From Primulina eburnea (Eukaryota; Streptophyta; Magnoliopsida; Lamiales; Gesneriaceae), in NCBI RefSeq assembly GCF_022965805.1, contig NC_133104.1, positions 22,405,308 through 22,469,307 of the forward strand: a stretch of 64,000 nucleotides of DNA. Direction: 5' to 3'. The notes below the pieces were generated by a model that saw nothing but the letters and a program-made list of their open reading frames with translations, searched no databases and was not told the origin of the DNA. A program made the position numbers and the translations under genes. Numbering within the stretch: the first letter of the stretch is position 1; each line of letters opens with the position of its first letter. Below are positions 1,274 through 64,000 of the stretch, piece by piece.

Positions 1274-3098
1274 TGTAATGCCCAAGAATTAATCACTGTA
1301 ATTAACGATGATTGAATTATCAGTTCATGTGATTATGAATGGACCAATCGGGATACCGAGAGGAGTATTTAGCATGAAATGGTGAAGGTGAGGCCGAGGG
1401 GACACCGCACCTGCGGCCTAGGAAGCACCGCACCCGCGGTTGTGCTTCGGGAAATATTGTGCATCGAGACCGTAGGGTGACCGCACCCGCGGTGCAAGAC
1501 CGCACCCGCGGTGCAGCAACGACCGCACCCGCGGTGTTGCGTGTTGTGCGGAAAATGAGCCACTTGCCATGATGCATGCGCGAGTTGTCTAGATATATAT
1601 ATAGACATGCTAGTCGGTTTTCAAAACATAAAATCAAGAGAAGGGTCTGAAGAAGAAAGGAGAAAATCCTTACGCCTTTGCTGAGAAATCCATCCGTCTG
1701 ATTTTGAATCCGACTTCGGTATTGAGTTCCTGGCAACGTAGGTTACAACTGGACGTAAGTTTTACTACGTTTTGACATGTTTTAGAATTATGATATTGTC
1801 AGAATTGAATGGAATTCATATATGATGTTCTTGACATATTAGACATCGTAGAATCGAAGTCAGATTAAGAAACAGACTAATTATGATATTGTTATGAATT
1901 TTCTGGTATATATTGATTTATACCGGACAGATTTGAATTGTGACGGGATTACGGATTGTATTGGATATGAGTTATGGATTGTAACTATTATTTGTTGAAT
2001 TGGTATTGACGGGGATATTGAAATTGTACCGTTATACCGTTGATTTGAATTAAATCCAGATTCATCAGATTGTTATTGAGTTGAACGGTATATTGACATG
2101 AGATTATTGATATTGTCATTGCCAGACAGGCTGTGAGTTCAAGACATCGACTGAGCAAGAAACCGACGAAAGAAAGGTATAAGTCAATGTGGTATTGGGA
2201 GATGGACTTGAGTCGGTTTGGACTTGGGTTTCCCTAAATCACATACTTTACTTTATTGCATTGATATTTGCATTGAATTGATGATATACTTGTTCTCTTG
2301 ATTTTAGATTACAGGTAGTAGACGATTTATCTTGTGACAGAAGTGCCGGATAGTGGTGGTATCGCCACGGCACATTGCACGATGTCTCAAGATAGGTTAT
2401 TAAATATAGAACTGCAGTCCATGACGGATAGGTCAGGACACCGGATGTTTGGTTATATCGAGTAATAGGAAATGGGAATTCGTCTATTACGGAATTCGAT
2501 ATAGGAATAGCAGGATATTGGTTATATCGAGTAATAGGAATACAGTTCCTTCTATTACGGAATTCGATATAGGAATACCACATCTGGAAACCGGGATCCC
2601 TAGACTAGGATTGAGTCTAGTCTGAACTGTAGAATTATGTCGACAGATTGCTATTGATTATGTTTCAGATTTTGATACATATATCTGTTACCTGATTACA
2701 TGCTTTATATTGTTTATATGATTGCATGTTTCGTTGATTTATACTGGGATTACATTCACACCGGAATTATCCGGCTGTTGTCTTGTCTGTATGTGTACAT
2801 GACAACAGGTGGGACAGGTTTAGGGTTGAGGAGATGAAGAAAGATCGTGATTAGAGTGGAGATTCCGGACTTTGATTTTGATGTATAGTAGGGTTTGAAC
2901 ACTTGACATTAGTTGTTAAACCTGAGTTTAGTTTGAATGCATGCAGTACAAGACTTGTATTGTATTTTATATACTGAGATGTATATATGTTTGATTTCAC
3001 TACGTTCCGCATTTTAAAAAAAAATTTAGACCCTGTTTTTAATTGATTAATTAGTCCCAATTATGATTAAGAACTTGATTAGCGTCCGGGTCCCCACA
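1274..3098 (+). mobile_element. Gy1 3' LTR
   Basis: Begins TGTAATGCCCAAG straight after a polypurine tract and ends GGGTCCCCACA, the same ends as the Gy2 LTR. It contains an ACCGC-type motif array (1404-1535), a TATA-like run (about 1594-1603), two copies of a long inverted repeat around 2451-2580 (arms TATATCGAGTAATAG and CTATTACG...CGATATA), the conserved block GGGATCCCTAGA near 2588, and a CCGG hairpin plus a GTTGTC hairpin near 2760-2815. No matching TSD could be read because the 5' end of the element is lost. Confidence 0.85.
1404..1535 (+). repeat. ACCGC-ACCC-GCGGT array, Gy1 LTR
   Basis: Five copies start at 1404 (degenerate), 1427, 1480, 1499 and 1522. The motif is a 5-bp inverted repeat ACCGC/GCGGT around a 4-base spacer ACCC. 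Two doublets keep a 23-bp start spacing (1404/1427 and 1499/1522). A TATA-like run lies about 57 bp downstream, so the array is in the expected U3 promoter position. Confidence 0.85.
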
Positions 3099-4231
3099 GA
3101 TATGGATCAGATATATATACTGATTTGAATATTGATCAGAACAGGTTTTGAATTGAGTTATATACTGATATTGTAATTATACGATTGTTATTGCCAGAGT
3201 GGGTATGGACAGATCAGAATACAAGATTTCGTCTTCGTCAGACCGGGAAGACAAAGGTATAAATAAATGTTGATTCGGTATTGCACAACTCGAGTTAGGT
3301 TTGACTTGAGTTTCCCAAAATCACATACTATATTTTATTGCATTGATATTTGCAGATTATCAGATTGACATGTTTAGTCTATTGAATGATAGCAGAGCCA
3401 GAGTTTGAGTCTAGGATAGATCAGCCTAGCTAGGGCAGAACCGCCAAGTCTTTGTCAGAACTGCTCAGACCCTAGACTTGTGGTATATCGATGAGCTTAG
3501 ATGTAGATCGACGTCTATTGTAGACACTCGATATAGCATGCCCAAGTCTAAGTCTTTGTCAGAACTGCTTAGACCCTAGACTTACGGTGTATCGATGAGC
3601 TTAGATGTAGATCGACGTCTATTGTAGACACTCGATACAGCATACCGAAGTCTAAATTAGATCGGGATCCCTAGATTAAAATGAGAGATGAGTTGAGTCT
3701 TAGATATTGAGACTAGAATTTGATTTACAGATCCGTATTAATTTATGTTTCGTAGATTACGATTCATGTTTTATTTACAGACTGGTATTGATACATGTTG
3801 TGTGATTATGCTACATGTGATAAGATATAATTCATGCTTTTATGTTAATTCAGTTAACTGCATGTACACATTATTTATACTGGGATTTATTCTCACCGGA
3901 GTATCCGACTGTTGTCTTGTTTTTATGTGTGCATGACAACAGGTGGGACAGGATCGGGGTCAAGAAGATGATGAGAGAAGACGAGTTTAGAGTGGTGATT
4001 CTGGACTTATTGTAGACTTGGTTTAATACTTGAAATTTAGTAGTTGAACCTTAGACTAGTTTGAATAATTGTTGTACATTATTGTACTTTCATACTGAGA
4101 TGTATATGAGTTAAATGCCATTACGTTCCGCACTTACATTCTAAAAAGAAAAATTTTTAGACCCTGTTATCTTAATTGATAATTAAATCCCAAAAATGAT
4201 TAAGAAGATGATTAGCGTCCGGGTCCCCACA
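3099..4231 (+). mobile_element. Second, divergent gypsy LTR 3' half joined to Gy1 LTR
   Basis: Directly after the first GGGTCCCCACA end, the sequence resumes inside a related LTR. It has the AAAGGTATAA ... TTTCCCAAAATCACATACT block (about 3254-3330), long inverted repeats with arms near ATATCGATGAGC (two copies, about 3480-3640), GGGATCCCTAGA near 3665, and the same hairpins near 3890-3945, ending GGGTCCCCACA at 4231. It lacks the U3 start and motif array. It differs enough from 1274-3098 to be a different family member and not a recent tandem copy. Confidence 0.7.
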
Positions 4232-4355
4232 GCATACAGATAAAGTATAACAAGACCATAAATAGTTAAATTATATTAAAATAAAGATTGTTTATTTTAC
4301 TTGAGTCAATAAATTTCCTAGCCAACCGTTGGCTTGCAGGGCATCTACTCTAACA
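4232..4355 (-). mobile_element. Copia LTR fragment (first ~124 bp)
   Basis: On the minus strand this begins TGTTAGAGTAGATGCCC at 4355 and runs about 124 bp, closely matching the copia LTR start at 5670-5522. It ends where the gypsy LTR half finishes at 4231, suggesting that the gypsy element inserted into a copia LTR. Confidence 0.7.
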
Positions 4356-4356
4356 A

Positions 4357-5670: not shown

Positions 5671-5684
5671 ATCTCCCACTTACA

Positions 5685-13991: not shown

Positions 13992-14087
13992 TGTAATGCC
14001 TAAGATTCTGGTAGATAGTTGAATATGAAACGCAAGAACAGACGGGGCGAAACGATGCGATAAAATATGAAATTTTAGCTGTGCAAG

Positions 14088-14272
14088 ACCGCACCCGCGG
14101 TCTGGCAAGCACCGCACCCGCGGTGCAATGGGCAGAAAATGAGTGAATTCCCGTAGCCACACCGCACCCGCGGTATTTACATGACCGCACCCGCGGTCAT
14201 CACTTGTGAAAAATTAAAAGTTCTGCCGAAGCCATGGCGCACCCGCGCTCCTAGTGTGACCGCACCCGCGGT
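14088..14272 (+). repeat. ACCGC-ACCC-GCGGT array, Gy2 5' LTR
   Basis: Six motifs start at 14088, 14111, 14161, 14184, 14236 and 14259: three doublets with 23-bp spacing separated by 50 and 52 bp. The motif at 14236 reads GCGC-ACCC-GCGC, so both arms changed together and the inverted repeat is kept. TATATATA follows 48 bp after the last motif. Confidence 0.9.
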
Positions 14273-14320
14273 GCTGCGTGTTACGAAAAGACGAAGCCAT
14301 GTGTTATAAATCATGCAAAG

Positions 14321-14328
14321 TATATATA
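14321..14328 (+). promoter_or_regulatory. TATA box of Gy2 5' LTR
   Basis: TATATATA lies downstream of the motif array, followed by a pyrimidine/purine-rich leader. Likely the Pol II core promoter for the genomic RNA; the start site itself is not visible. Confidence 0.7.
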
Positions 14329-15475
14329 GAGCTGGCTTCATTTCCTTCTTGCTCAGATGACACAGCCGAGAGAAGGAGAGAAAAGGGAAACTTAAGGAAG
14401 AAGGAGAGTTCTTGCTCTTGAATTTAGATATCTCACGATTTAGCCATTCAAATCATAATCCGAGTTAAGAATTGTGTTCCTTGCTTTGAAAGCTACAAAG
14501 TGATGTAAGTATTGCTTAATTCTAGCAAGTTTCACGATTTAGATGTTAGAGGAATTGGAATACGATAGTTATATTATGTTCTTGACGTATTGAGCATGAT
14601 ATATTTGTAAACAGATCGAAGAACAGATATCATATGCAATTATTATGAAATTCAGCATAGTAGAAGTACATTGTATCGATTCTGAATATGGTTTTGTGCA
14701 TAGGATTTGAGTATGAGTTGAGGATGATATAATGTTGATATCTGTTGAGATTTGGATTGACCGGTGTTAAGAATATACGTCGTTATGCCGTCAAATCGTA
14801 TCGAGATCACGTAGTGTGTTGATTTAGATTAGAGATCGATAGATTGTATATCAACATTTCCATTTCAGATTCAGTTTGGCGACCGTGACAGCGATTGTGC
14901 GACGAAAGGTATAGTACATGTTTTGTTTGGGGAATCACGACTCAAATGAGATTATATTTGAGTTTCCCAACCAAAATCACATACTTATTTTATTTTTTAT
15001 ATCTAGATATGATTATGATTGTTTATAGATTTGTTTATAGAACTTGTATACAAATCTTACTATGCTTTGTTTACAGATCATATAGGCATTGCATTAGAAT
15101 GATTATGCTTGTTTACAGATTTTGTATTCATGCATTAAGATAGGACAGTCTGGAGATCAGGCAGACTTCTAGATGTTCGGCGATATCTCAGCTTAGGGGT
15201 AGATCACCGCCCCTTTGTAGACGTGGATACAGATCAGGCCGAAGTCTAGGAATAAGACGTACAGCACCTCGATTGGTAGGGTAGGTGACAGCCAGTGACG
15301 TCTTATTCACAACAGGATCCCTAGAGTTCTAGTCGAGTCGCGTCTAGACATGATTAGACTCGCATTGCATGATTATATATGAATGACATTCATATTAGCA
15401 TGTTTCATGTTTTAGATTGTTTTAATGCATGTATACATGTTTATACTGGGATTTGTTCTCACCGGTTTTCCGGCT

Positions 15476-15505
15476 GTTGTTATGTCTGTATGTGTGCATA
15501 ACAAC
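15476..15505 (+). other. Conserved LTR hairpin GTTGTTATG/CATAACAAC
   Basis: A perfect 9-bp stem (15476-15484 with 15497-15505) closes the loop TCTGTATGTGTG. Gy1, its second half-LTR and Gy3 have the same loop but GTTGTC-type arms with GACAAC on the other side, so stem changes are compensated. A CCGG-TTTT-CCGG hairpin precedes it. Role unknown; near the likely R/U5 region. Confidence 0.75.
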
Positions 15506-15805
15506 AGGTGGGGCAGGATCTGGGTCGAGACAGAGATGATCGTGTTAGCGTGGAGATCACGGGCGTAGCAGATGGACCAGTAGTTGTCTTTTGTTTTTAT
15601 GTACTGTCTTTTAATACGGGTTAGTGGAGGACATGCAGATTAAGACATGTATATTATGTTTGTATGTTGTAAATTAAATAAAGGTTGATGCTTGTTTAAT
15701 TACATTTGATTAAATGTAAAAACGAAAAAAAATTGACCCCTGTTTTAGAATAATGATCCATTTAATCCCAAGAAAAAGAATTAGAGCCCGGGTCCCCACA
15801 ACAGG

Positions 15806-16052: not shown

Positions 16053-19000
16053 ATGCCTCCTAGAAGAGCAGCCGTACCTCTACGACCCACAGCACCAGAA
16101 CAGGGGAGCACATCCGGAGATCCTATGGATGTTACGGCGACCCCTATGGAGACGTTGCTGAAGCGATTCAAATCCTTTCGACCTCCCACATTAAAAGGTA
16201 CCGAGAATGCCATCGAGTGCGAAAGTTGGCTTGAGGACATTGAAATGTTATTCGACTCTTTGGAGTACAGTGACGAGAAGAGAATAAAGCTAATTGGCCA
16301 TCAATTGCAAGATATAGCCAAGAATTGGTGGTTGAACATTAGGAGAGCTTTAGAGCAGCGGGGTACCGAGATTACTTGGAAGGTATTTAAGACGGAGTTC
16401 TATCAGCGTTTCTTTCCCATCTCCTATCGCAAGGATAAAGGTGCAGAATTTGCCATTCTAAGGCAAGGGCCACTGAACATTGAGGAGTACGTTGCCAAAT
16501 TCTCTTCTTTGCTTCGTTTTGCACCCCATGTTTCAGGTAGTGACGAGGCGGTGGCGTACCAATTTGAATCGAGCCAAGAGTGCAGAAGCAGGATTGTTGA
16601 GGCAGCGGAGTGCTCCTTATGTTGCTCCGATACCGAGACCACGAGCACCTACCATTCCACCCCCTCCAAGATTTCATAGTGGCGGTAGTAGCAGTGGCAG
16701 AAAGGAACAGCTGAAGGCGAAGGGGAAACAGTTTAAGCGACCTGGGAGCAGTTCGTCCAGCTCCAGCGGATCAAGACAGACTGGTTTTGATCAAAATTTA
16801 AGGACTTCAGGTGTCTACTGCAATTCTTGTGGAGGTAGGCATGCGACTGAACAATGCCAAGGAGTTACAGGCCGATGTAACCTTTGTAGGCAACCGGGGC
16901 ATTTTGCCAAAGTCAGTCCACAGAGAGGTGTACAGCAAGCCCAGATTGGACGAGCATCCGGGCCAGTACCTCAGTTTGAGCGGCAGGCATCATCGGTTCA
17001 CTCTTTTCAGCCTCCACCAGCACCGACTCCAACCAAAGGCCGAGGTAGTCAGACGGTGAGTCAACCTCCGAGGCAACAGGCTCAAGTGTTTGCATTGACA
17101 GAAGAGCAAGCACAAGATGCACCATATGATGTTATAGCAGGTAACTGCTTTCTTTATGGTTATCCTGCTTATATCTTGATAGATACATGTGCATCGCATA
17201 CATTCATTTCGGAGCGATTTGCATTGTTGCATTCATTTCCTGTTGAGTCTTTGTTAGAGGTTGTATCTATTAATTCTCCGTTGGGAAGTGGATTGATATC
17301 TGTAACTACGGTTAAACATTGCATTCTACAGTTTGAGGGGCATGAGATTGACCTAGATTGTATAGTGTTGGGCCTAGCTGATTTTGATTGTATAGTCGGT
17401 ATTGACATGCTAACAAAGTACAGAGCCACTGTAGATTGTTTCCATAAGATTGTCAGATTCAGACTCGAGATGACAGACGAGTGGAAATTCTACGGGAAGG
17501 GTTCCAGATCTCGGATTCCCTTGATTTCGGCTCTTACTATGAACAGATTGTTACAAAAAGAAGCAGATGGTTTCTTTATTTATGCTTTAGATATGCAGAA
17601 GTCGAGCCCGGCATTGGCAGATTTGCCAGTAGTACGGGAATTTCCAGATATTTTTCCAGATGAAATCCCAGGATTACCTCCAGTGCGAGAGGTAGATTTT
17701 AGTATTGATCTTGTACCAGGTACCGTCCCTATTTCGAGAGCTCCATATAGGATGGCACCCATCGAACTAAAAGAATTGAAAGCACAATTAGAAGATCTTC
17801 TGGCCAAGGGATATACCAGACCTAGTGTATCTCCTTGGGGCGCTCCGGTGCTGTTCGTGCGAAAGAAAGATGGGTCGATGCGTTTATGTATTGATTACAG
17901 GCAACTGAACAAGGCAACGATCAAGAATAAATATCCTTTGCCTAGAATTGATGATCTATTCGATCAGTTGCAGGGATCCTCTGTTTATTCTAAGATTGAT
18001 TTACGTTCTGGGTATCATCAGCTCAGAGTTCGAGATGTAGATATACTGAAGACAGCATTTCGAACCAGGTATGGACATTACGAATTTATTGTCATGCCTT
18101 TTGGTTTAACCAATGCTCCTGCGGTATTTATGGGCTTGATGAATCAAGTGTTTCAGAGGTATTTAGATGATTTTGTGATCGTTTTCATAGATGATATTTT
18201 GGTGTATTCGAAGAACAGAAATGAGCATGCAGAGCATCTCAGAATTGTCTTGCAGACGTTGAGAAACGAACAACTGTATGCGAAATTGTCAAAGTGTGAA
18301 TTTTGGCTGAATCGAGTTGTATTCTTGGGGCATATCATTTCTGGAGATGGTATTTCTGTTGATCCGAGTAAAGTGGAAGCTGTGATCAATTGGCCAAGAC
18401 CGACTTCGGTACCGGAAATACGCAGTTTCATGGGTCTGGCAGGATACTACCGAAGATTTATTCAAGATTTCTCCAGTATCGCAAAGCCAATCACACAATT
18501 GACACAGAAGAATATGCAATTCGTTTGGTCAGAGGAATGCGAGTCTAGCTTCCTAGAACTGAAGAAAAAGCTGACTAGTGCTCAGTGTTGACGATACCTT
18601 CAGGTACGGGTGATTTCGTTGTACATTGCGATGCTTCTCACAGAGGTTTGGGATGTGTGCTTATGCAACGAGGTCATGTGATCGCATACGCCTCAAGACA
18701 ATTGAAGCCACATGAAGTTCGATACCCCATTCATGATCTGGAATTGGCGGCTATCGTATTTGCATTAAAGATTTGGCGTCATTATCTCTACGGCGAGAAA
18801 TTTGAGATCTTTTCCGATCACAAGAGCCTAAAGTACCTATTCTCTCAATCAGAATTGAACATGAGGCAGCGTAGATGGCTTGATCTGTTAAAAGATTTTG
18901 ATTGTGAAATCAAATATTATATAGGAAAGTCAAATGCTGCAGCGGACGCTTTGAGTCGAAAGGTTTGTTCTCTATCCTTGTCGACGATAGGTGTTACAAA

Positions 19001-20513
19001 ACTCGTTGAAAATTGCTGTTTCTCTGGACTAGAATTTGATATAGATAGGAGGCCATTACGACTTGCTGCTATTCAAGTTGAGCCGGATTTGATCATGAGA
19101 ATCAAAGAAGCACAGAGAAGAGATCAGAACGTGCAAAGATCGATTCAAATGGTCAGATCAGGGCATATGTCAGAATATCAGGTACATGATCATGTGATGT
19201 ACGTGAATAACCGTCTTGTTGTACCAGATGTTGCAGAGTTGAAACAGCATATTCTGTCAGAGGCACATTGTAGTCGGTTCAGCATTCATCCTGGTGGCAG
19301 GAAGATGTATAATGACTTGAAGACACAGTTCTGGTGGAAACATATGAAATCAGATATTGCAGAATTCGTGTCTAAGTGTTTGAACTGCCAACAGGTAAAA
19401 GCTGAAAGGAAGAAGCCCGGAGGGTTACTTCAGAGTTTATCTATTCCAGAATGGAAATGGGATCACATTTCCATGGATTTTGTGACGAAGTTACCTCGAT
19501 CATCCAGAGGTTGCGATGCGATTTGGGTTATTATTGACAGATTGACCAAATCTGCTTGTTTCATTCCGTATAGAATGACGTATAGACAAGATCAAATGGC
19601 GGAGATATATATTCGAGAGGTAGTAAGGTTGCATGGAGTGCCGAAATCTATCGTATCAGATCGTGATCCACGATTCACTTCTCACTTTTGGCACAGTTTA
19701 CAGCAGGCCTTGGGTACGACATTACACCTGAGTACTGCTTACCATCCTCAGACAGACGGACAGTCAGAGCGGACTATCCAGACATTAGAAGATATGTTGA
19801 GAGCCGTCGTGCTAGATTTTGACATTAGTTGGCAAGATTCCCTACCTCTTTGCGAATTTTCTTACAATAATAGCTATCAGACGAGTATCGAGATGGCACC
19901 GTTTGAAGCTTTGTATGGCAAGAAGTGCAGATCTCCGCTATATTTGGATGATATCTCAGAAGTGCCAGAACTTGGGCCGGATATGATTCGTGACATGACA
20001 GAGAAAGTGAAAGTCATTCAGAAGAGAATGAAGACAGCACAGGATAGACAAGCGAAGTACGCCAATATCCGACGTAGACCGTTAGTATTTGAGGCAGGAG
20101 ATAGAGTATTCTTAAAGATTTCTCCTTTTAGAGGCGTTGTAAGATTTGGCAAACGCGGGAAACTATCTCCTCGATACATTGGTCCTTACGAGATTCTTGA
20201 GAAGATTGGCGATCGAGCTTATCGACTTGCACTTCCTCCTTCTCTATCCGGAATACATGATGTGTTTCATGTATCAATGTTACGAAGATATATGCCAGAT
20301 ATTTCTCATGTCATTCAACCTGATGAAGCTGAACTTGATCAGACTTTGAGCTATGTGGAACAACCGATACAGATTCTTGATCGGAAAAATAAGCAACTCA
20401 GAACGAAGACTATTCCACTTGTGAAAGTTCAGTGGAGTCGTCATGGTATCGAAGAAGCGACGTGGGAGACGGAAGCAAATATGCGCCAGAAATACCCCGA
20501 ACTATTTCAATGA
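16053..20513 (+). pseudogene. Gy2 gag-pol, broken
   Basis: ATG 16053 opens gag (MPPRRAAVPL...). Capsid-like sequence runs to about 16570, where about 71 bp present in Gy3 (25349-25419) are missing, shifting the frame; the second frame carries on to a TGA at 18589-18591. A one-base loss at about 18583 causes a second shift; the last frame runs to 20513. Domains: CCHC knuckle near 16876, protease near 17180, RT with FIDD near 18187, RNase H near 18620, HHCC and DDE integrase from about 19260 (SDRDPRF about 19655), chromodomain-like tail. Two key residues are altered: the protease triad DTG reads DTC (17182-17190), and the last Cys of the knuckle is Ser (16915-16917). Confidence 0.93.
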
Positions 20514-20614: not shown

Positions 20615-22410
20615 TGTAATGCCTAAGATTCTGGTAGATAGTTGAATATGAAACACAAGAACAGACGGGGCGAAACGATGCGATAAAATATGAAATTTTA
20701 GCTGTGCAAGACCGCACCCGCGGTCTGGCAAGCACCGCACCCGCGGTGCAATGGGCAGAAAATGAGTGAATTCCCGTAGCCACACCGCACCCGCGGTCAT
20801 CACTTGTGAAAAATTAAAAGTTCTGCCGAAGCCATGGCGCACCCGCGCTCCTAGTGTGACCGCACCCGCGGTGCTGCGTGTTACGAAAAGACGAAGCCAT
20901 GTGTTATAAATCATGCAAAGTATATATAGAGCTGGCTTCATTTCCTTCTTGCTCAGATGACACAGCCGAGAGAAGGAGAGAAAAGGGAAACTTAAGGAAG
21001 AAGGAGAGTTCTTGCTCTTGAATTTAGATATCTCACGATTTAGCCATCCAAATCATAATCCGAGTTAAGAATTGTGTTCCTTGCTTTGAAAGCTACAAAG
21101 TGATGTAAGTATTGCTTAATTCTAGCAAGTTTCACGATTTAGATTTTAGAGGAATTGGAATACGATAGTTATATTATGTTCTTGACGTATTGAGCATGAT
21201 ATATTTGTAAACAGATCGAAGAACCAATATCATATGCAATTATTATGAAATTCAGCATAGTAGAAGTACATTGTATCGATTCTGAATATGGTTTTGTGCA
21301 TAGGATTTGAGTATGAGTTGAGGATGATATACTGTTGATATCTGTTGAGATTTGGATTGACCGGTGTTAAGAATATACGTCGTTATGCCGTCAAATCGTA
21401 TCGAGATCACGTAGTGACTTGGATATGTGTTGATTTAGATTAGAGATCGATAGATTGTATATCAACATTTCCATTTCAGATTCAGTTTGGCGACCGTGAC
21501 AGCAATTGTGCGACGAAAGGTATAGTACATGTTTTGTTTGGGGAATCACGACTCAAATGAGATTATATTTGAGTTTCCCAACCAAAATCACATACTTATT
21601 TTATTGTTTATATCTAGATATGATTATGATTGTTTATAGATTTGTTTATAGAACTTGTATACAAATCTTACTATGCTTTGTTTACAGATCATGTGGCATT
21701 GCATTATAATTATTATGCTTGTTTACAGATTTTGTATTCATGCATTAAGATAGGACAGTCTGGAGATCAGGCAGACTTCTAGATGTTCGGCGATATCTCA
21801 GCTTAGGGGAAGATCACCGCCCCTTTGTAGACGTGGATACAGATCAGGCCGAAGTCTAGGAATAAGACGTACAACACCTCGATTGGTAGGGTAGGTGACA
21901 GCCAGTGACTTCTTATTCACAACGGGATCCCTAGAGTTCTATTCGGGTCGCGTCTAGACATGATTAGACTCGCATTGCATGATTATATATGAATGACATT
22001 CATATTAGCATGTTTCATGTTTTAGATTGTTTTAATGCATGTATACATGTTTATACTGGGATTTGTTCTCACCGGTTTTCCGGCTGTTGTTATGTCTGTA
22101 TGTGTGCATAACAACAGGTGGGGCAGGATCTGGGTCGAGACAGAGATGATCGTGTTAGCGTGGAGATCACGGGCGTAGCAGATGGACCAGTAGTTGTATT
22201 TTGTTTTTATGTACTGTCTTTTAATACGGGTTAGTGGAGGACATGCAGATTAAGACATGTATATTATGTTTGTATGTTGTAAATTAAATAAAGGTTGATG
22301 CTTGTTTAATTACATTTGATTAAATGTAAAAACGAAAAAAAATTGACCCCTGTTTTAGAATAATGATCCATTTAATCCCAAGAAAAAGAATTAGAGCCCG
22401 GGTCCCCACA
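20615..22410 (+). mobile_element. Gy2 3' LTR (1796 bp)
   Basis: Same ends and order of parts as the 5' LTR. Differs by a 23-bp loss within the motif array, an extra ~11 bp near 21415, and scattered base changes. Motifs start at 20711, 20734, 20784, 20836 and 20859, one fewer than in the 5' LTR. Confidence 0.95.
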
Positions 22411-22798
22411 AACATTGAGACTCTATGTGCTAGAATTACACTTTGACTTGTTTACCGACTCTCATGGGGTCATCAGGTGGCAAGGTTGGGTGTTCTGTCG
22501 AAACATATAGGAGTCGATGCATTGTAGTCGGGGATTCACTGCTTACCTTCGGGTATGGATATCCTATGTGTTATCAGGTGTATGTAAGTTGAAATCTCTG
22601 ATCAAAGTATGTTGGTAATTATGAAAGGGTTTCATAGATTACACCATCGATGCAACTACGACATGTCACATAGTATCGATTCATTGAAAACTCTCGATAA
22701 GCCAATGGTTGTCGAATCGATCGGGATATATGAGTTGAAAGGACCGTACTGTACGCTAACCATAATTGAATGGTTCTTGCAGGCACTATCATTTGATA
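22411..22798 (+). mobile_element. Co2 3' LTR, piece 2 (with TSD AACAT at 22411-22415)
   Basis: Resumes AACATTGAGACTC where piece 1 stopped, matching the 5' LTR from about 6255, and ends ATCATTTGATA at the Gy3 start. Bases 22794-22798 (TGATA) are the left TSD of Gy3. Confidence 0.95.
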
Positions 22799-22897
22799 TG
22801 TAAGGCTCGAGAATTATCAACTGGTATTGATGTTAGACTTGTAAAGGTAAGAATGCATGACAATTAAATCAGAATTGTGAAGCTGGGCCGAAGCCAC

Positions 22898-23125
22898 ACC
22901 GCACCCGCGGTAAAGGAAGGACCGCACCCGCGGTGCAGGGAGAGGAAATTAGTGGATTTGTGCGAAGCAAGACCGCACCCGTGGTGCAAGCAAGACCGCA
23001 CCCGCGGTGGTAAGACTGCACCCGCGATCATGCAGGGACCGCACCCGCGGTCGAGGTATTCTCAAAAATAAAATCCTGCCGAAACATGAGCGCACCCGCG
23101 GTGCTGGGGTGACCGCACCCGCGGT
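22898..23125 (+). repeat. ACCGC-ACCC-GCGGT array, Gy3 5' LTR
   Basis: Eight motifs start at 22898, 22921, 22972, 22995, 23015, 23038, 23089 and 23112: four doublets, each exactly 23 bp, with gaps of 51, 20 and 51 bp between doublets. Some copies are degenerate (ACCGC-ACCC-GTGGT, ACTGC-ACCC-GCGAT). Confidence 0.9.
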
Positions 23126-23174
23126 GTTGCATGCGAAATGCCACCTTTGAATTTTGTGTTGACACTTGGCATAG

Positions 23175-23184
23175 TATATATATA
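23175..23184 (+). promoter_or_regulatory. TATA box of Gy3 5' LTR
   Basis: A TATATATATA-like run about 50 bp after the last array motif, as in Gy2. The 3' LTR has a shorter version (GTATATAC) at the same place, near 37494. Confidence 0.65.
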
Positions 23185-24605
23185 CATTGCAATGACACCT
23201 CATTGTCTTCATTCAAAGAGAAACGAGGGATGCTCCATGGAAATTCCTTCAAGGTTTTAGACTAGCAACAAAGATTATACAACAACTAGCCATCCGATTT
23301 TGATTTCGAATACGGATTTGTGATCCTTGCGACAAAAGCTAACTAAGGGTGTAAGTATTATTCATTTTTAGCATGTTTCGAAATAATTATGTGGGGAAAT
23401 TCAGATATGAGTTAGAATATGTGTTCTTGATATCTTGAGCATGGTATATTCGTTAACGGATCATTTTTCAGACATTGAATGCTACTATTTCGAAATTCCA
23501 GCTTATATGGGTATGAGATTATACAGATTTCAGAATGCATATTAATGGTTGATGATATTGTGAGTTGAGTATGATGGAGTATATTATTGTTGAGTTACCG
23601 GTATCGAAGAATTAAGCCGTTATGCCGTAGAATTTGTACCGAGTATGAGTATTGAATTGTACAAGACTTGTTTGAGTTGTGTTTTGATATGGCACATTTA
23701 TGCATCATCATTTCAGATTGAATTGACAGAGTTGCCATTCGACTTCGAGATCTCGACCGATTCCTACGACAAGAATGGTATAATTCATGTGGTCACGGGA
23801 TTGCACAACTCGATTCAGATTTGATACGAGTTTCCCTAAATCACATACTAGATTGTTATTACATTTGATTTTGTAATGTATTGTTTATTGATTTATATTC
23901 GAGTCCTGAGCTAGGAGATATTGGCAGATTGGCCAAAACTAGACGTTTCGGTGTATCGACGCATATTAGTAGATTTTCTCTATGTGTAGACCCTCGATAC
24001 AGAGTTGACCGAAGTCTAGGAATAAGACGTACCGTCACCACGAGTGGTTGGGTAGGTGACAGACCGTCTTATTCACACTGGGATCCCTAGATTAGAAATG
24101 AGTCGAGTCAAGATTTAAATGTTGAATACAGATTTGTATTCTTCTACATGTTTAGATTTGCATTCATGTTACTTGATATATGCTAAGCTTTTATACATGA
24201 TTATTACATTGCATGCATCCATGTTTTATACTGGGATATGTTCTCACCGGAGTTATCCGGCTGTTGTCGTGTCTGTATGTGTGCATGACAACAGGTGGGG
24301 CAGGATCTGGGTCTCGAGCTAGATGAGAGATTGATGATAGCGTGGAGATCTCGGGCGTTGAAGATTTCTAGTGTTTCCTACTAGACTTGTATCACTTATG
24401 TTTGTAGTTGGTATTTGAACACTAGTGTATGCTTGTACGAAACAGACTTGTATGTACCTGATGTTGTTTAATTATTATAAAGATATGTCATGTTTTGATT
24501 ACACATTTGAATTAATGTTAAAAGAAAAATTTTGACCCACATTTTCGAGCAAAGATCCAATAAATCCCAAAAGAATTGAGTTAGAGCCCGGGTCCCCACA
24601 ACAGG

Positions 24606-26839: not shown

Positions 26840-28453
26840 TGTGACACCCTGACCCATAACATTAAAAATACACAGCGGAAATAAAATTTTCTTTAAAATA
26901 TGGAAGGAGTTTCAAAATACATTTCATAAAAATGTTTACAAAATAAATACATGATCATTCAAATGATATACAAAATACAAAATAATCATTCTTATGATCA
27001 TGTCCCAAAATGATACAAAATAATCTTCCTTCCAACGGTGTATGCATATGACCCCCATCCACGATCACTGTCCTGGTCGATCACTCTTATCTGCATCACA
27101 TGAAAATAACTGAAATGAGAATAAATCTCAGCAAGTGGAACTCTAACATAGCAATGATACAATATACTCTGTAAAACATGACTTTGAAATCATAAATATC
27201 ATCAACTCTGAAACATGAATAATATAGCAATAACTGTAGCAATAGCAATAGCAATAGATAGCAATACGATGGTATTTCTCTTTTCTCTGGTTGGATTGAT
27301 ATCAATAGTATCTCTGACTGTGGTTGCAAATATCCCATCGATATAAATCGATAACTGTGAGGGATAAAAGCCTATGGTTGTTGATCAACTAATTGCATGC
27401 AATGCTCTGACTATGATTCAATCAATCCAATAAAACATTTGAACTCTGAATAGCATTTAAAGCCGTCGTTTCACAATCTCTTATTTTCTCTTGTATTCCC
27501 TTTTAACAATAGTGAGACATCAATGCCTCCAATAGATAATCAATGGGATCAATACATAACAATGAATCAATTGAAGGGAATATCACTTTAAAATCTTTAA
27601 AACACAATACATATAACATCATGTGAGCAAAGGGATGAAATTCCACTTACAAACCAATAGAACACCTCCAAACTATACTCTTGGTACACCACCTACAACA
27701 ATAATCCATAAATAACACCAATATCAACTCTAAATCCAAAAACTCAAGTCAAACAATCCATTAAACCAACAATAACAACACCCTATAACATCTCATAACC
27801 AAAACCATGATAGAACTCAACCAAAAACTTACCTAAGCTTCCTTATACCACGGAGAATCTCGATCTCAAGTCGGAAATCCAAACAAATCCAAGAATCAAA
27901 GGTAGGAAGCAATTGAAATGGAAGAAAACCCTTGGAAAAGGAGAGAAAACGAGTTGGAAGGGAAAAGATAAGGGAAAGTATGGCCAACCACTCCCAAAAA
28001 GTAACTAAATATCTCGCCCATACCTTCACCGCGGGTGCGCTGCCACAAGCACCGCGGGTGCGCTAAGCTCACGGCACAACAAAATAAAATCCATGCACGA
28101 TGACCGCGGATGCGGTGCTGCTAATACCGCGGGTGCGGTCTCACCGCGGGTGCGGTCCATGCACTGCCGCGGGTGCGGTGATGCCACGACCTTCCAAATC
28201 CAAAATGATGAATAGTACACCGCGGGGGCACTCCTCTAAGAGCGCGGGTGCACTCAAGCCACGGCAATGAACAGTACTCAATCAACAAAAATCGATCCGA
28301 AATGCTGAAACGAACAATCAACACCAACTAACACCTCAATAAAACAATAACCAATAATACTATGGCCCAAAACACAACTCTAAACATCTAATCACATAAC
28401 CCAAAAAACATACAAAACTTAAACCTGACCGCACACCGGGCTCGGCTATTACA
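26840..28453 (-). mobile_element. Gy4 3' LTR (1614 bp)
   Basis: Plus-strand view TGTGACACC...GGCTATTACA. No coding frame of note. Holds the ACCGC-type motif array at 28028-28254 and a microsatellite-like CAATAG run near 27235-27260. Confidence 0.95.
28028..28254 (-). repeat. ACCGC-type array, Gy4 3' LTR
   Basis: Plus-strand starts 28028, 28051, 28103, 28126, 28143, 28166, 28219 and 28241: four doublets of 22-23 bp with gaps of 52, 17 and 53 bp, nearly the same plan as Gy3 (51, 20, 51). Several copies have AGCGC on one side, so arms are imperfect. The other LTR has the matching array at about 34234-34460. Confidence 0.88.
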
Positions 28454-37081: not shown

Positions 37082-37119
37082 GAGTTCGAGGAAGAACTCC
37101 TCTTTAAGAGGGGGAGAAA
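37082..37119 (+). promoter_or_regulatory. Gy3 pre-PPT hairpin and polypurine tract
   Basis: GAGTTC (37082-37087), loop GAGGAA, GAACTC (37094-37099), then GAGGGGGAGAAA (37108-37119). Both arms differ from the GATTTCG/CGAAATC form of the other elements, but in matching ways. Confidence 0.82.
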
Positions 37120-38921
37120 TGTAAGGCTCGAGAATTATCAACTGGCATTGATGTTATACTTGTAAAGGTAAGAATGCATGACAATTAAATCAGAATTGTG
37201 AAGCTGGGCCGAAGCCACACCGCACCCGCGGTACAGGAAGGACCGCACCCGCGGTGCAGGGAGAGGAAATTAGTGGATTTGTGAGAAGCAAGACCGCACC
37301 CGCGGTGCAAGCAAGACCGCACCCGCGGTGGTAAGATCGCACTCGCGGTCATGCAGGGACCGCACCCGCGGTCGAGGTATTCTCAAAAATAAAATCCTGC
37401 CGAAACATGAGCGCACCCGCGGTGCTGGGGTGACCGCACCCGCGGTGTTGCATGCGAAATGCCACCTTTGAATTTCGTGTTGACACTTGGCATAGTATAT
37501 ACTTTGCAATGACACCTCATTGTCTTAATTCAGAACAAGAGAAACGAGGGATGCTCCATGGAAATTCCTTCAAGGTTTTAGACTAGCAACAAAGATTATA
37601 CAACAACTAGCCATCCGATTTTGATTTCGAATACGGATTTGTGATCCTTGCGACAAAAGCTAACTAAGGGTGTAAGTATTATTCATTTTTAGCATGTTTC
37701 GAAATAATTATGTGGGGAAATTCAGATATGAGTTAGAATATGTGTTCTTGATATCTTGAGCATGGTATATTCGTTAACGGATCATTTTTCAGACATTGTA
37801 TGCTACTATTTCGAAATTCCAGCTTATATGGGTATGTGATTATACAGATTTCAGAATGCATATTAATGGTTGATGATATTGTGAGTTGAGTATGATGGAG
37901 TATATTATTGTTGAGTTACCGGTATCGGAGAATTAAGCCGTTATGCCGTAGAATTTGTACCGAGTATGAGTATTGAATTGTACAAGACTTGTTTGAGTTG
38001 TGTTTTGATATGGCACATTTATGCATCATCATTTCAGATTGAATTGACAGAGTTGCCATTCGACTTCGAGATCTCGACCGATTCCTACGACAAGAAAGGT
38101 ATAATTCATGTGGTCACGGGATTGCACAACTCGATTCAGATTTGATACGAGTTTCCCTAAATCACATACTAGATTGTTATTACATTTGATTTTGTAATGT
38201 ATTGTTTATTGATTTATATTCGAGTCCTGAGCTAGGAGATATTGGCAGATTGGCCAAAACTAGACGTTTCGGTGTATCGACGCATAGTAGTAGATTTTCT
38301 CTATGTGTAGACCCTCGATACAGAGTTGACCGAAGTCTAGGAATAAGACGTACCGTCACCACGAGTGGTTGGGTAGGTGACAGACCGTCTTATTCACACT
38401 GGGATCCCTAGATTAGAAATGAGTCGAGTCAAGATTTAAATGTTGAATACAGATTTGTATTCTTCTACATGTTTAGATTTGCATTCATGTTACTTGATAT
38501 ATGCTATGCTTTTATACATGATTATTACATTGCATGCATCCATGTTTTATACTGGGATATGTTCTCACCGGAGTTATCCGGCTGTTGTCGTGTCTGTATG
38601 TGTGCATGAAAACAGGTGGGGCAGGATCTGGGTCTCGAGCTAGATGAGAGATTGATGATAGCGTGGAGATCTCGGGCGTTGAAGATTTCTAGTGTTTCCT
38701 ACTAGACTTGTATCACTTATGTTTGTATTTGGTATTTGAACACTAGTGTATGCTTGTACGAAACAGACTTGTATGTACCTGATGTTGTTTAATTATTATA
38801 AAGATATGTCATGTTTTGATTACACATTTGAATTAATGTTAAAAGCAAAATTTTGACCCACATTTTCGAGCAAAGATCCAATAAATCCCAAAAGAATTGA
38901 GTTAGAGCCCGGGTCCCCACA
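37120..38921 (+). mobile_element. Gy3 3' LTR (1802 bp)
   Basis: Same ends, length and motif array (about 37219-37445) as the 5' LTR; small indels near the TATA box (37495) and near 37530, and scattered substitutions. Confidence 0.95.
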
Positions 38922-54200: not shown

Positions 54201-54590
54201 TTTAAGTTGCATGCGATTTTATTATGTAGTACTCGTTATTCCAGTTTATACGTGTTGAGTCTTTAGACTCACTAGACTTGATCGATGCAGGTGAGTATGT
54301 TGAGGAGGAGACAGGAGGTGGCGATCAAGGGGCAGGCTTGGACTGAGCGGAAGGCTAAACCCGAGGACCACTATGTTTATGTTTTATGAAAATTTAAAAT
54401 ATTATGTTTTTATGTTGGATGTGAGATGATTTGAAATAAGTACTTTGTTGGAAAATATTAGTTGGGAATGTTGATTTTAATATTATTAAGTTAAATGACA
54501 AGTGACGACCGTATGAAATTTTATGTTTAAGAAAATTTTTAATTTTTCCGCAAATTTTGAAGTAGTAAAATTAAAGTACGGTACGTTACA
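51268..54590 (+). mobile_element. La1 LTR3 (3323 bp), the original 3' LTR
   Basis: TGTGAAGTCCCG...GGTACGTTACA. Longer than LTR1/LTR2 by 47 bp in the third 181-bp repeat (about 52727-52775) and carries scattered substitutions relative to both. Unlike LTR1 and LTR2, which end TTATA, it ends in the canonical TTACA. Confidence 0.9.
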
Positions 54591-57948: not shown

Positions 57949-58053
57949 TGTAGTAGCCCGAATTCCAAATTGGGTAATTAACGGAGTAATGGTGATTAAG
58001 AAGGTTTAAGGTGTAATTTTGGCTATGGTCATGATTGGACGGACCGAAGAGGG

Positions 58054-58256
58054 TTCGGAAGCACCGAAGAGTTCGGACGATCCGAAGTGTAGTTCGGTGA
58101 ATCCGATCATAGGTGTCAAGTGTTGATCGACACGTCATTTTCCATGCATGTTCGGACGGTCCGAAGTGTATGATCGGAGGATCCGATCATGAGCTGTCAA
58201 GAGCCAATGGACACGTAGCGTTCGGACGTTCCGGAGTGTTGTTCGGAGGATCCGAA
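58054..58256 (+). repeat. TTCGGA-NNN-TCCGAA array, Gy5 5' LTR
   Basis: Motifs start at 58054, 58072, 58093, 58151, 58173, 58221 and 58242, with a weaker one near 58034. Doublets are 21-22 bp apart (58072/58093, 58151/58173, 58221/58242). ATCGGA-GGA-TCCGAT at 58173 has both arms changed together. The 3' LTR repeats the array from about 63577. Confidence 0.9.
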
Positions 58257-58263
58257 CATGGCC

Positions 58264-58271
58264 TATAAATA
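58264..58271 (+). promoter_or_regulatory. TATA box of Gy5 5' LTR
   Basis: TATAAATA eight bases after the last motif, followed by a leader with CT-rich stretches. The best TATA box in the window; the 3' LTR copy is at 63807-63814. Confidence 0.8.
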
Positions 58272-59311
58272 GTGCTCGGATTTCCTCATTTTGACTTGCC
58301 AATTTCTTGAGTTTTCTCTCATTTTGGAGAGTTTGGAAGGTTTCTAGGGTTAGTTGTTGGTCGAGCGATAGCTAAGAACTGCCAGGAGTAGTAGCGTAGC
58401 GGCGCCTGAGTTTCAAGGCAATCGACATCAAAGGGCTGTCGACGGACGAAGGCTTGTGCTAGACCTGATTAGCGGTGTTGCGTAAGGCTAGGCTTGCTGT
58501 GATAGAGGTACGAAAGTACTATCCGAGATATCCTGGTTGAGTATACATTCATATATGTGTTGCATGAGTATTTGCTGCATTGTTATATGTCATATGATGC
58601 ATGCTATTATGTCACGAGTTATGATGCATATTGCATATCATGTTGAGCCGTATCTCCTTCGAGATAGCCTTTACTGTTGAGCTGTATCTCTTTCGAGATA
58701 AGCTATATCTTGGGGCCGCTCAGCCCTGTCTTGTGGACGCATGGACACCGAGAGTACACAGTGGCCGACGGGTCGGGAGGGCTTCGGTGGTCCGGGACAT
58801 TTTAGGTCCACGTCTGTCTTGTAGTGGATGCAGTGACCCAGAGGTTGGACCGCGCGGCACTATCCACTTGGCGCCTCTAGACTGAGCATTTTGAGATCCT
58901 TTGTGATTCCTGTTTCTTGACTACCCTGGTATCATATCATAGCATGTGCATTTCATATAGGTTTGTATACTCATACTTTAGTACTGGGCGTTCTTATCGC
59001 TCACGTCCTCGGTTTTGTTTATTCTTGGACACCCCATTCCCACGGGGCAGGCCTCAGGTTGGATGGCTCAGGAGGAGCAGGAGGAGGACGTTGAGTAGCT
59101 GGTTGGTTTAGTTTTCAGTGTTTTCCATTTGATTCGATATGGTTGTACTGGATATTTCATTTTGAGTTAGTCTAGACTTCGATTTCGATTGGGTTGTATA
59201 ACTATTGTTGTTGGCCATATTTCCGCTGTTATCTCTGATTATAATTAATTAGGTTAATTGCATGCTTAGTTTTTGATTAGTAGGTGATTCTGGAACGGGT
59301 CACTACATTTA

Positions 59312-62400: not shown

Positions 62401-63341
62401 ATAATCGTGACTTCACTTTCGATCGTATGGCTCGATTGTACATTCAGGAGATTGTACGTTTGCATGGAGTGCCTGTCAGTATTGTTAGTGACAGAGATCC
62501 TCGTTTTACCTCACGGTTTTGGGGTAGTTTCCAGTCAGCTTTGGGTACTACACTGAGTCTGAGTACTGCTTATCATCCGGAGACTGACGGTCAATCAGAG
62601 AGGACTATCCGTACGCTTGAGGATATGTTGCGAGCCTGTGTTATGGATTTCGGACCCGCTTGGCAGGATCATTTGCCTTTGATTGAGTTCGCGTACAACA
62701 ACAGCTATCATCGTAGTATTGGTATGGCACCATTTGAGGCGTTGTACGGGCGACGTTGTCGTACTCCATTATTCTGGGATGAAGTCGGGGAACGACAGGT
62801 AGAGGGACCGGAGTTAGTCCAGCAGGCTATAGATAAGGTTGCAGTAATCAAGAAGCGGATTAAGACTGCTCAGGATCGACAGGCTAGTTATGCGAACACA
62901 AAGCGTCGACCTCTTCATTTTCAGCCAGGTGAGAAGGTGTTTCTCCGAGTTTCGCCTTTTCGCAGGATTTTGAGATTTGGTCTCAAGGGTAAGCTGTCTC
63001 CGAGATTTATTGGTCCATTCGAGATACTGGAATGTGTGGGAGATTTAGCTTACAGACTTGCGTTGCCGCCGTACCTATCAAGTATTCATGATGTGTTCCA
63101 CGTATCCTTGTTGAGACGTTATGTAGCAGATGAGTCGCACATCTTACATCCATCTGAAGTTCAACTTGATACGGATTTGTCTTACGTGGAGCGACCAGTT
63201 CAGATTCTAGATCGCAAAGATAAGGTGTTGCGGAATAAGATCATTCCTCTTGTCTTAGTGCAGTGGCAGCGTCGAGGCACTGAAGAAGCCACTTGGGAGT
63301 TAGAGAGTCGTATGCGTTCGGAGCATCCAGAGCTCTTTTGA
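59406..63341 (+). CDS. Gy5 gag-pol polyprotein, open but lacking the RT core
   Basis: ATG 59406 ([13 protein letters not shown]) is preferred to an upstream in-frame start at 59355, whose first residues are hydrophobic and unlike gag. About 1311 codons, no stop. Domains: gag capsid; CCHC-like [13 protein letters not shown] and [14 protein letters not shown] near residues 260-295; protease DTGASHSF near 361; RT N-terminal lead-in ([19 protein letters not shown]) to about 565; then a direct jump to the RT thumb region ([11 protein letters not shown]). The palm and fingers, about 180 residues including FIDD, are missing in frame. RNase H (YTDAST near 681), HHCC integrase (near 896), DDE core (MDFITH near 966, SDRDPRF near 1026), chromodomain-like tail. 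It could supply gag, protease and integrase but not reverse transcribe. Confidence 0.93.
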
Positions 63342-63456
63342 GTTGTGCTTTGTATAAGTTTGTGTTTTCAGTTGTAATCATAGTATCAGTTGTATTCAAC
63401 AACAATTGAGATGTATTAATGATGTTGTTATTTCGTTTTGTTCATTCTCTAAGCCT

Positions 63457-63491
63457 GATTTCGAGGACGAAATCTTTTAAGGGGGGGAGAA
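63457..63491 (+). promoter_or_regulatory. Gy5 pre-PPT hairpin and polypurine tract
   Basis: GATTTCG (63457-63463), loop AGGA, CGAAATC (63468-63474), then AAGGGGGGGAGAA (about 63479-63491) before the 3' LTR. Confidence 0.85.
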
Positions 63492-64000
63492 TGTAGTAGC
63501 CCGAATTCCAAATTGGGTAATTAACGGAGTAATGGTGATTAAGAAGGTTTAAGGTGTAATTTTGGCTATGGTCATGATCGGACGGACCGAAGAGGGTTCG
63601 GAAGCACCGAAGAGTTCGGACGATCCGAAGTGTAGTTCGGTGAATCCGATCATAGGTGTCAAGTGTTGATCGACACGTCATTTTCCATGCATGTTCGGAC
63701 GGTCCGAAGTGTATGATCGGAGGATCCGATCATGAGCTGTCAAGAGCCAATGGACACGTAGCGTTCGGACGTTCCGGAGTGTTGTTCGGAGGATCCGAAC
63801 ATGGCCTATAAATAGTGCTCGGATTTCCTCATTTTGACTTGCCAATTTCTTGAGTTTTCTCTCATTTTGGAGAGTTTGGAAGGTTTCTAGGGTTAGTTGT
63901 TGGTCGAGCGATAGCTAAGAACTGCCAGGAGTAGTAGCGTAGCGGCGCCTGAGTTTCAAGGCAATCGACATCAAAGGGCTGTCGACGGACGAAGGCTTGT
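63492..64000 (+). mobile_element. Gy5 3' LTR, first 509 bp
   Basis: TGTAGTAGCCCGAATTCC, matching the 5' LTR nearly base for base; includes the motif array (to about 63799) and TATA box (63807-63814). Cut by the window end. Confidence 0.93.

What the first reader, a model, noticed from the sequence alone, without database searches (positions are those of the whole stretch)
1404..63799. Unrelated inverted-repeat motifs arranged by the same doublet rule in LTR promoters
Upstream of the TATA box, LTRs of different families carry arrays of short inverted repeats: ACCGC-ACCC-GCGGT in Gy1, Gy2, Gy3 and Gy4, GCGC-ATAT-GCGC in the LTR at 1-289, and TTCGGA-NNN-TCCGAA in Gy5. Motif sequences differ, but starts come in doublets: exactly 23 bp in Gy2 and Gy3, 22-23 in Gy4, 22 in the ATAT array, 21-22 in Gy5. 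That is about two helical turns, which would put both sites on one DNA face. Arm changes are compensated (GCGC-ACCC-GCGC in Gy2; ATCGGA-GGA-TCCGAT in Gy5). Inference: arrays for a dimeric DNA-binding protein (activator or silencing factor) that change motif while keeping geometry. I know of no described name for this.
Basis: partly seen in the sequence, partly recalled or inferred. Interest (0 to 1): 0.9.

Follow-up and report, generated by a model that had tools for sequence, protein, structure and literature searches.

The report
Paired palindrome code in retrotransposon promoters
Many jumping genes of this plant carry, just before the likely start point of their RNA, rows of short mirror-image DNA words set in pairs about 22 letters apart, and the word can change while the spacing stays, which points to a paired DNA-binding protein still to be identified.

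Summary
In the window's 812 Mb plant genome GCGCATATGCGC has 46,571 matches (control 8), with 14,186 exact pairs at 22-23 bp (control 0); TTCGGA-N3-TCCGAA has 30,046 (control 11). In 230 kb taken at fixed positions, 70 SCGC-N4-GCGS sites stand against 0.65 expected, none isolated, 26 of 57 adjacent spacings 22-23 bp and none 24-30.

Corrections: three of the four motifs share one frame, SCGC-N4-GCGS, differing in the centre; TTCGGA is separate. Arm covariation is weak. 22-23 bp is two turns plus 1-2 bp.

New: LTRs of different motif class can be 84-94% identical on both sides of an unalignable array, so arrays look like exchanged cassettes. The TTCGGA array occurs in a Ty3/gypsy LTR, a Ty1/copia LTR and an internal copia promoter; TATA lies 7 bp after the last palindrome in 10 of 12 such arrays, 9 of them of one gypsy family. 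Arms are five to six times better conserved than linkers.

Best reading: exchangeable promoter cassettes for a host-encoded dimeric activator, unidentified.

The parts
1..289 (-). Partial LTR (by eye its U3 end is at about 289, so it reads on the minus strand) beside the integrase region of Gy1; ATAT-class array with sites at 21, 52, 74, 105 (degenerate) and 127
   Evidence: spacings 31,22,31,22
1274..1600 (+). Gy1 3' LTR, first part: ACCC-class array 1404-1535, TATA-like box at 1594
   Evidence: spacings 23,53,19,23
13992..15801 (+). Gy2 5' LTR; ACCC-class array 14088-14272, TATA-like box at 14305
   Evidence: spacings 23,50,23,52,23
20615..22411 (+). Gy2 3' LTR; ACCC-class array 20711-20872
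22795..24600 (+). Gy3 5' LTR; ACCC-class array 22898-23125, TATA-like box at 23175
   Evidence: spacings 23,51,23,20,23,51,23
37116..38921 (+). Gy3 3' LTR; ACCC-class array 37219-37446
   Evidence: same spacings as the 5' LTR
26840..28453 (-). Gy4 LTR (element lies inside Gy3, minus strand); ACCC-class array 28028-28254
   Evidence: spacings 23,52,23,17,23,53,22
33048..34661 (-). Gy4 other LTR; ACCC-class array 34235-34461
57949..58457 (+). Gy5 5' LTR, first part (Ty3/gypsy element); TTCGGA-class array 58034-58256, TATA-like box at 58264, 7 bp after the last palindrome
63492..64000 (+). Gy5 3' LTR (cut by the window end); TTCGGA-class array 63577-63799
   Evidence: 99.8% identical to the 5' LTR over 509 bp
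16480..20513 (+). Gy2 pol reading frames (protease, RT, RNase H, integrase, weak Chromo match); no other ORF of 300 aa or more between the Gy2 LTRs

Best explanation
The arrays are promoter cassettes. Shown: each palindrome is a two-fold site (SCGC-N4-GCGS, or TTCGGA-N3-TCCGAA); sites come as doublets 22-23 bp (19-22 bp in the TTCGGA class) apart; in class A the other distances cluster near 3, 4 and 5 helical turns; arrays lie before a TATA-like box, often at one of two distances; arms are conserved better than linkers; arrays differ between LTRs that are alike on both sides. Inferred: each palindrome is bound by a protein dimer, two dimers on a doublet form a side-by-side complex, and stacked complexes recruit the transcription machinery or keep the LTR open. 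The factor is most likely encoded by host genes and used by several element families, with related factors reading different centres.
For: Doublet spacing far above permutation and in fixed-position sequence; 14,186 exact ATAT pairs at 22-23 bp genome-wide, control 0. Arm mismatch 0.059 against linker 0.359 (305 of 306 ordered pairs) for class A; 0.055 against 0.272 (88 of 88) for class T. Linkers between sites differ in sequence (identity 0.41 against 0.33 when shuffled) while their length is kept. TATA 7 bp after the last palindrome in 10 of 12 class T arrays, among them an internal copia promoter; 47-61 bp in 11 of 19 class A arrays. Non-doublet distances in class A peak at 31, 42-43 and 50-53 bp (best periods 9.8-10.4, R=0.63, n=51). 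The TTCGGA class occurs in Ty3/gypsy Gy5 and in a Ty1/copia element, which points to a factor not tied to one element family; the Gy2 frames of 300 aa or more show only pol-type domains.
Against: No binding protein, expression or chromatin data. 10 of 20 chromovirus 3' ends show no such array within the 851 bases read, so not all elements need it. The centre tetranucleotide keeps one orientation in the ACCC and most YCGA sites, which a symmetric dimer would not require. Related arrays are not independent. The class A distance to TATA varies (7 to 189 bp; none found in 2 of 19). With degenerate sites admitted, a few spacings of 24-30 bp appear (8 of 136).
Confidence: 0.66

Rival explanations
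1. The factor is encoded by a retrotransposon. For example the accessory protein of the copia element (423 aa, Pfam PF20167, behind the internal TTCGGA promoter) binds the palindromes, as VANC proteins do for VANDAL elements, and other elements have captured its binding cassette.
For: The accessory gene has its own TTCGGA array and TATA-like box, found in 40 of 40 scored places at 97-100% identity (529 candidates); the frame is open in L047 and L048; PF20167 matches at 1.1e-16. The proximal Gy5 promoter and this internal promoter share 83 bp at 77%, palindromes included.
Against: Pfam shows no known DNA-binding domain in it; the structure model of its only found relative was useless (pLDDT 35); tblastn found relatives only in L023 and L046-L049 of the held loci, none beside class A arrays; a genome search for PF20167 did not complete.
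Confidence: 0.13
2. RNA hairpins. U3 is also the 3' end of the element RNA, and the inverted repeats act there as stem-loops (packaging, stability, 3' end formation).
For: The centre of the ACCC class has one strand orientation; YCGA doublets form one longer inverted repeat; G.U-type mismatches outnumber A.C over all class A sites (29 to 16; class T 5 to 5).
Against: With one array per cluster and sites of at most one mismatch the difference is 12 to 7 (p=0.36; class T 1 to 2). Outer pairs are G.G or C.C in 56 class A sites. Neither fixed 22-23 bp spacing nor placement before TATA, also at an internal promoter, is needed for RNA hairpins.
Confidence: 0.07
3. Targets of a host silencing factor (sequence-specific repressor or methyl-CpG reader) that recognises CpG-rich palindromes.
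For: Every half-site of both frames holds a CpG; arrays sit in very abundant repeats.
Against: Elements would be expected to lose such sites; instead CpG-containing arms are conserved while linkers drift and arrays are found in several LTR backbones. One class is also used at an internal promoter. No methylation or expression data were at hand.
Confidence: 0.1
4. Passive tandem duplication (minisatellite growth) of a short unit, without function of the spacing.
For: Repeated motifs at regular spacing; true 50-51 bp minisatellites exist in the sampled loci (L009:6175, L019:2206); some linkers are alike (L058: GTTTTT three times).
Against: Linkers within an array are only slightly more alike than shuffled ones (0.41 against 0.33 within doublets, 0.435 against 0.305 between doublets); the same doublet spacing recurs in arrays of different motif that do not align.
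Confidence: 0.04

Closest known systems
Modular U3 evolution of the Tnt1 retrotransposon superfamily (PMC1838419; abstract and found passages seen)
   Same: Subfamilies alike outside U3 differ in the U3 regulatory region, and the region evolves as a module.
   Different: There Ty1/copia in Solanaceae, and the passages seen report no palindrome doublet rule; here one doublet geometry persists across motif classes and in both superfamilies.
VANC proteins and VANDAL target motif arrays of Arabidopsis (PMC5735166; found passages seen)
   Same: Short motifs accumulate in elements and change between related elements, with the factor changing too.
   Different: Motif YAGTATTAY is not a spaced palindrome; targets form by tandem repeats; the factor is element-encoded and known. 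That VANDALs are DNA transposons is recalled.
Repeated enhancer boxes in plant LTRs (Tnt1 BII box, Tto1 13-bp repeat, ONSEN heat-shock elements; recalled, nothing read)
   Same: Repeated transcription-factor sites upstream of TATA in U3.
   Different: Recalled as single-family cases; no shared two-fold doublet grammar across families is known to me.
HTLV-1 21-bp repeats in U3 (recalled, nothing read)
   Same: Repeated dimer sites in U3 driving transcription.
   Different: Animal retrovirus with its own transactivator; no motif-class exchange known to me.

Membership tests
LTR U3 enhancer array (general kind) | repeated candidate binding sites between LTR start and TATA box | tested here: met
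   a TATA-like box follows the array within 61 bp in 13 of 19 class A and 12 of 12 class T arrays examined (one of the class T arrays is internal, not LTR)
LTR U3 enhancer array (general kind) | a protein binds the sites and raises transcription | not testable with these tools
   no binding or expression data
Modular U3 evolution (Tnt1 type) | U3 module differs between elements that are alike on both sides | tested here: met
   e.g. L019a (ATAT) against L058 (YCGA): 5' flank 94% over 86 bp, R-U5 88% over 279 bp, array match only 14 bp
Modular U3 evolution (Tnt1 type) | member of the Tnt1 superfamily (Ty1/copia) | tested here: not met
   window elements Gy2-Gy5 are Ty3/gypsy by Pfam; the copia family of L023 was not compared with Tnt1
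VANC/VANDAL anti-silencing system | element encodes a VANC-type protein | tested here: inconclusive
   frames of 300 aa or more in Gy2-Gy5 show only gag-pol-type Pfam domains; shorter frames, and whether Pfam has a VANC model, not checked
VANC/VANDAL anti-silencing system | targets arise by tandem repeats of a unit | tested here: not met
   linkers within arrays hardly alike
Minisatellite | whole unit including linker repeated | tested here: not met

The most novel reading that the evidence does not exclude
A genome-wide regulatory code of retrotransposons: a two-fold doublet grammar with a fixed frame (SCGC-N4-GCGS) whose central tetranucleotide works as an address for different members of one family of dimeric regulators, carried on cassettes that pass between LTR lineages and, for the TTCGGA version, between Ty3/gypsy and Ty1/copia, and used also to give an accessory gene its own promoter.
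Probability: 0.3. Interest if true: 0.87.

Novelty: new variant of a known kind. Interest (0 to 1): 0.68.

Why it matters
How retrotransposons keep being transcribed in a host that silences them is an open question. A conserved geometry with changing motif gives a ready-made bait: a doublet oligonucleotide may pull out the factor. Exchange of such arrays between LTR lineages, and perhaps between superfamilies, would show that promoters of retrotransposons travel by themselves, and motif-class switching may record a contest between elements and host regulators.

Tried and rejected
Arm covariation: for class T the outer pair is T-A 52, T-T 12, A-A 7, A-T 6, C-A 2, T-G 1, with repeated copies of one site; no convincing covariation. 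RNA reading: the G.T/A.C bias is not significant with one array per cluster. L009:6175 and L025:4441 (about 50 bp units) and L019:2206 (51 bp) also came out of the inverted-repeat scans but look like ordinary minisatellites and were dropped. L021:7107 and L023:1077 are GC-rich inverted-repeat clusters of another kind. A motif-free scan gave 15 inverted-repeat pairs at 19-24 bp in the 23 stretches (0.15 shuffled) but also 11 at 25-29 bp, so only the motif-based test is specific to 22-23 bp. Accessory protein structure: the single-sequence model of database relative P0122 had pLDDT 35 and was not used for a fold search; the profile search found no further relative. LBD-type factors were considered because of CGG-like half-sites (recalled); the listings gave no usable test. 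Six exact motif strings are in no paper of the held library; six spaced forms gave two CRISPR papers only. Other literature searches, listings only: 20, 23, 51, 75, 93, 103. Counts of ATAT pairs at other spacings, the ACCC genome count and a genome search for PF20167 did not complete. A sample of copia 3' ends was planned and could not be fetched, so how common arrays are among copia elements is unknown.
Full report
1. What the window is. The window (64 kb) lies at C4:22.4 Mb of an unnamed 812 Mb genome. Frames belonging to Gy2, Gy3 and Gy4 give between them Ty3-type gag, protease, RT, RNase H and integrase domains, with Chromo matches below the cut-off for Gy2 and Gy3 (seven of the eight frames of 300 aa or more were scanned there, the first being a copia-type gag). 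Gy5, scanned in three pieces, gives Ty3-type gag, protease, RNase H, integrase and SH3_Tf2-1. Those of the 120 listed relatives of the Gy2 integrase that carry an organism name are flowering plants (120 listed of 7,977). LTR pairs were placed by self-comparison. I read the elements as chromoviruses of the Tekay kind; that name is recalled.

2. The motifs are there. Allowing a few mismatches, the arrays resolve into doublets: 23,50,23,52,23 (Gy2), 23,51,23,20,23,51,23 (Gy3), 23,52,23,17,23,53,22 (Gy4), 31,22,31,22 (LTR at 1-289), 20,18,21,58,22,48,21 (Gy5), 23,53,19,23 (Gy1).

3. Chance. Genome-wide GCGCATATGCGC has 46,571 exact matches against 8 for the reversed pattern, TTCGGANNNTCCGAA 30,046 against 11, and the ATAT pair at 22 or 23 bp 14,186 against 0; counts at other spacings were asked for and never answered. 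In 23 stretches of 10 kb taken at fixed round coordinates, 10 of 23 hold exact sites of either frame; there are 70 SCGC-N4-GCGS sites against 0.65 in shuffles and 2 for the arm-swapped control, 0 of 70 stand alone, and 26 of 57 adjacent spacings are 22 or 23, with none from 24 to 30 or from 32 to 40. A motif-free scan of the same stretches found 15 inverted-repeat pairs at 19-24 bp against 0.15 shuffled, but 11 at 25-29 bp too, from GC-rich clusters of another kind and from secondary repeats inside arrays. Permutation of site positions on one array per sequence cluster gave 66 of 136 adjacent spacings at 22-23 against 8.9 expected, and 15 of 23 at 19-22 for the TTCGGA class against 4.5 (43 arrays, 24 clusters; sites with up to 2 or 3 mismatches near strong ones are included). 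Arrays of one class remain partly related, so clusters are not fully independent; and L028-L045 were chosen because they hold the motif.

4. One frame, several centres. Gy1-Gy4, the 1-289 LTR and many other loci fit SCGC-N4-GCGS with centre ACCC, ATAT (or ACAT, ATGT), or YCGA/CTGG/CTGA. So three of the motifs are variants of one frame. TTCGGA-N3-TCCGAA is separate, with a free centre (mismatch 0.55).

5. Sampling without looking for the motif. From 150 listed places of the integrase SH3 domain (23,300 candidates), 20 were taken, about every seventh, and 851 bases downstream read. Arrays are in 10 of 20 (L052, L055, L057, L058, L060, L061, L062, L064, L065, L068) and were not seen in 10 of 20. 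In L060 only one site is exact and the rest was judged by eye; an array beyond the 851 bases would have been missed.

6. Conservation. Between related arrays the arms differ at 0.059 per base and the linkers at 0.359 (305 of 306 ordered pairs with arm below linker); for the TTCGGA class 0.055 against 0.272 (88 of 88) (pairs with at least 110 aligned bases and 60-93% identity; both LTRs of an element and a few pairs of different centre are included; the printed list was cut). Alignment on shared motifs favours the arms somewhat. Linkers inside one array are hardly alike (0.41 against 0.33 shuffled within doublets, 94 pairs; 0.435 against 0.305 between doublets, 39 pairs), which speaks against simple tandem duplication. 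Linkers between doublets share a second word, CAGAA (14 of 45 against 2.3 expected) or GGCAGA (7 of 45 against 0.5).

7. Cassettes. LTRs of different class can be nearly the same on both sides of the array: L019a (ATAT) and L058 (YCGA) 94% over 86 bp before and 88% over 279 bp after; L013b (ACCC) and L068 (YCGA) 86% over 105 bp and 87% over 223 bp; L019a and L013b (ATAT, ACCC) 85% over 95 bp and 86% over 315 bp; while these arrays match over 8-14 bp only. Of the 14 same-class pairs among the 45 pairs printed, 12 align over more than 100 bp of array (171 pairs compared, the 45 nearest in R-U5 printed; others of different class have flanks of 70-83%). Conversely YCGA arrays of L062 and L052 match those of L058, L068 and L013a at 73-79% over 112-118 bp although the 5' flanks match over only 19-25 bp; the 3' flanks read there are too short (31-32 bp) to compare. 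The simplest reading is exchange of a module by recombination between elements (inferred; template switching during reverse transcription is a likely route). Replacement of all sites in place would give the same picture for the first set of pairs but not for the second.

8. Across superfamilies. L023 holds a Ty1/copia element (Pfam Retrotran_gag_2, RVT_2) whose LTR carries a TTCGGA array, and a second TTCGGA array with its own TATA-like box inside the element, after pol and before an accessory frame. The internal module is found, in full or all but one base, in 40 of 40 scored places (529 candidates), 97-100% identical, so it is part of that family and not a chance insertion. The accessory frame is open in L047 and L048 (423 aa from the ATG), broken in L046 and without a long frame in the strand read for L049 (its copy is on the other strand), and matches PF20167. 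Gy5 (Ty3/gypsy) and this internal promoter share 83 bp at 77%, palindromes and TATA box included: shared descent of a module or convergence cannot be told apart from this stretch alone. The TATA-like box begins 7 bp after the last palindrome in 10 of 12 TTCGGA arrays examined: nine of the Gy5 kind and the internal promoter; exceptions are the L023 LTR (39 bp) and L034 (27 bp). In class A the distance is 47-61 bp in 11 of 19 arrays; others 7, 33, 73, 108, 137 and 189 bp, and none found in 2.

9. Geometry. Apart from the doublet, class A distances pile up at 31, 42-43 and 50-53 bp: best periods 9.8-10.4 bp, R = 0.63, n = 51 (periods from 8 to 13.8 tried). The doublet itself, 22-23 bp, is 1-2 bp more than two turns of 10.5 bp, so 'same face' holds only roughly. 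For the TTCGGA class (19-22 bp) it fits better, but there are only 7 non-doublet distances.

10. What was not upheld. Compensation: GCGC-ACCC-GCGC in Gy2 is compensated, but GCGC-ACCC-GCGG in Gy3, Gy4, L019b, L064 and L065 is not, and 56 class A sites have G.G or C.C as outer pair. RNA hairpins: the excess of G.T over A.C mismatches (29 to 16) falls to 12 to 7 (p = 0.36) with one array per cluster.

11. Mechanism. A two-fold site at a fixed two-turn-plus spacing in front of TATA is what a dimeric DNA-binding protein that assembles as a dimer of dimers would select. For the TTCGGA class the factor must serve Ty3/gypsy and Ty1/copia elements, so a host factor is the simplest source; an element-encoded one (PF20167) remains possible. 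Activation or anti-silencing is more likely than silencing because sites are conserved and shared. All of this paragraph is inference.

12. Known or new. U3 modules that differ between otherwise similar elements are known from Tnt1 (PMC1838419, abstract and passages seen), and motif arrays that change with their factor from VANDAL/VANC (PMC5735166, passages seen). PMC6911290 (passages) concerns palindromes at insertion sites, another matter. In the listings seen (capped at 6 to 20 papers each) I noticed no paper with this doublet grammar; subscription papers are mostly not held. I file it as a new variant of a known kind.

Noticed in passing
L050-L069, about 70-150 bases into the reads (just before the 3' LTR); window 1235-1252: An inverted repeat of about 16-20 bp (GATTTCGAGGACGAAATC type in 14 of 20, AAATCTGGGGACCAGATTT in 3 of 20) stands beside the polypurine tract of most chromovirus 3' ends read. 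Possibly an RNA structure for plus-strand priming.
   Followed up: no
L023:7395-9219; L047:2054-3322: Ty1/copia family with its own internal promoter before an accessory gene (PF20167, 423 aa; C-terminal part looks coiled-coil by eye); several polypurine tracts before the 3' LTR.
   Followed up: partly
window 39046-54595: A 6.1 kb unit repeated head to tail about two and a half times at 96-99% identity, with 181 bp direct repeats inside: tandem LTR-element array or unequal crossing-over product.
   Followed up: no
linkers between doublets, e.g. L058, L013, L026:9645: A second conserved word, CAGAA or GGCAGA (CAGAA in 14 of 45 linkers against 2.3 expected), and by eye TGCCGAAG before some doublets: a likely second factor site.
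   Followed up: partly
L009:6175, L025:4441: Minisatellites of about 50 bp with CGGTT...AACCG inverted repeats, in L009 near sequence that looks like a DNA transposon with subterminal inverted repeats.
   Followed up: no
L021:7107-7180: Tight cluster of GGGCAGCCC and CGGGCAG inverted repeats, different from the arrays studied.
   Followed up: no
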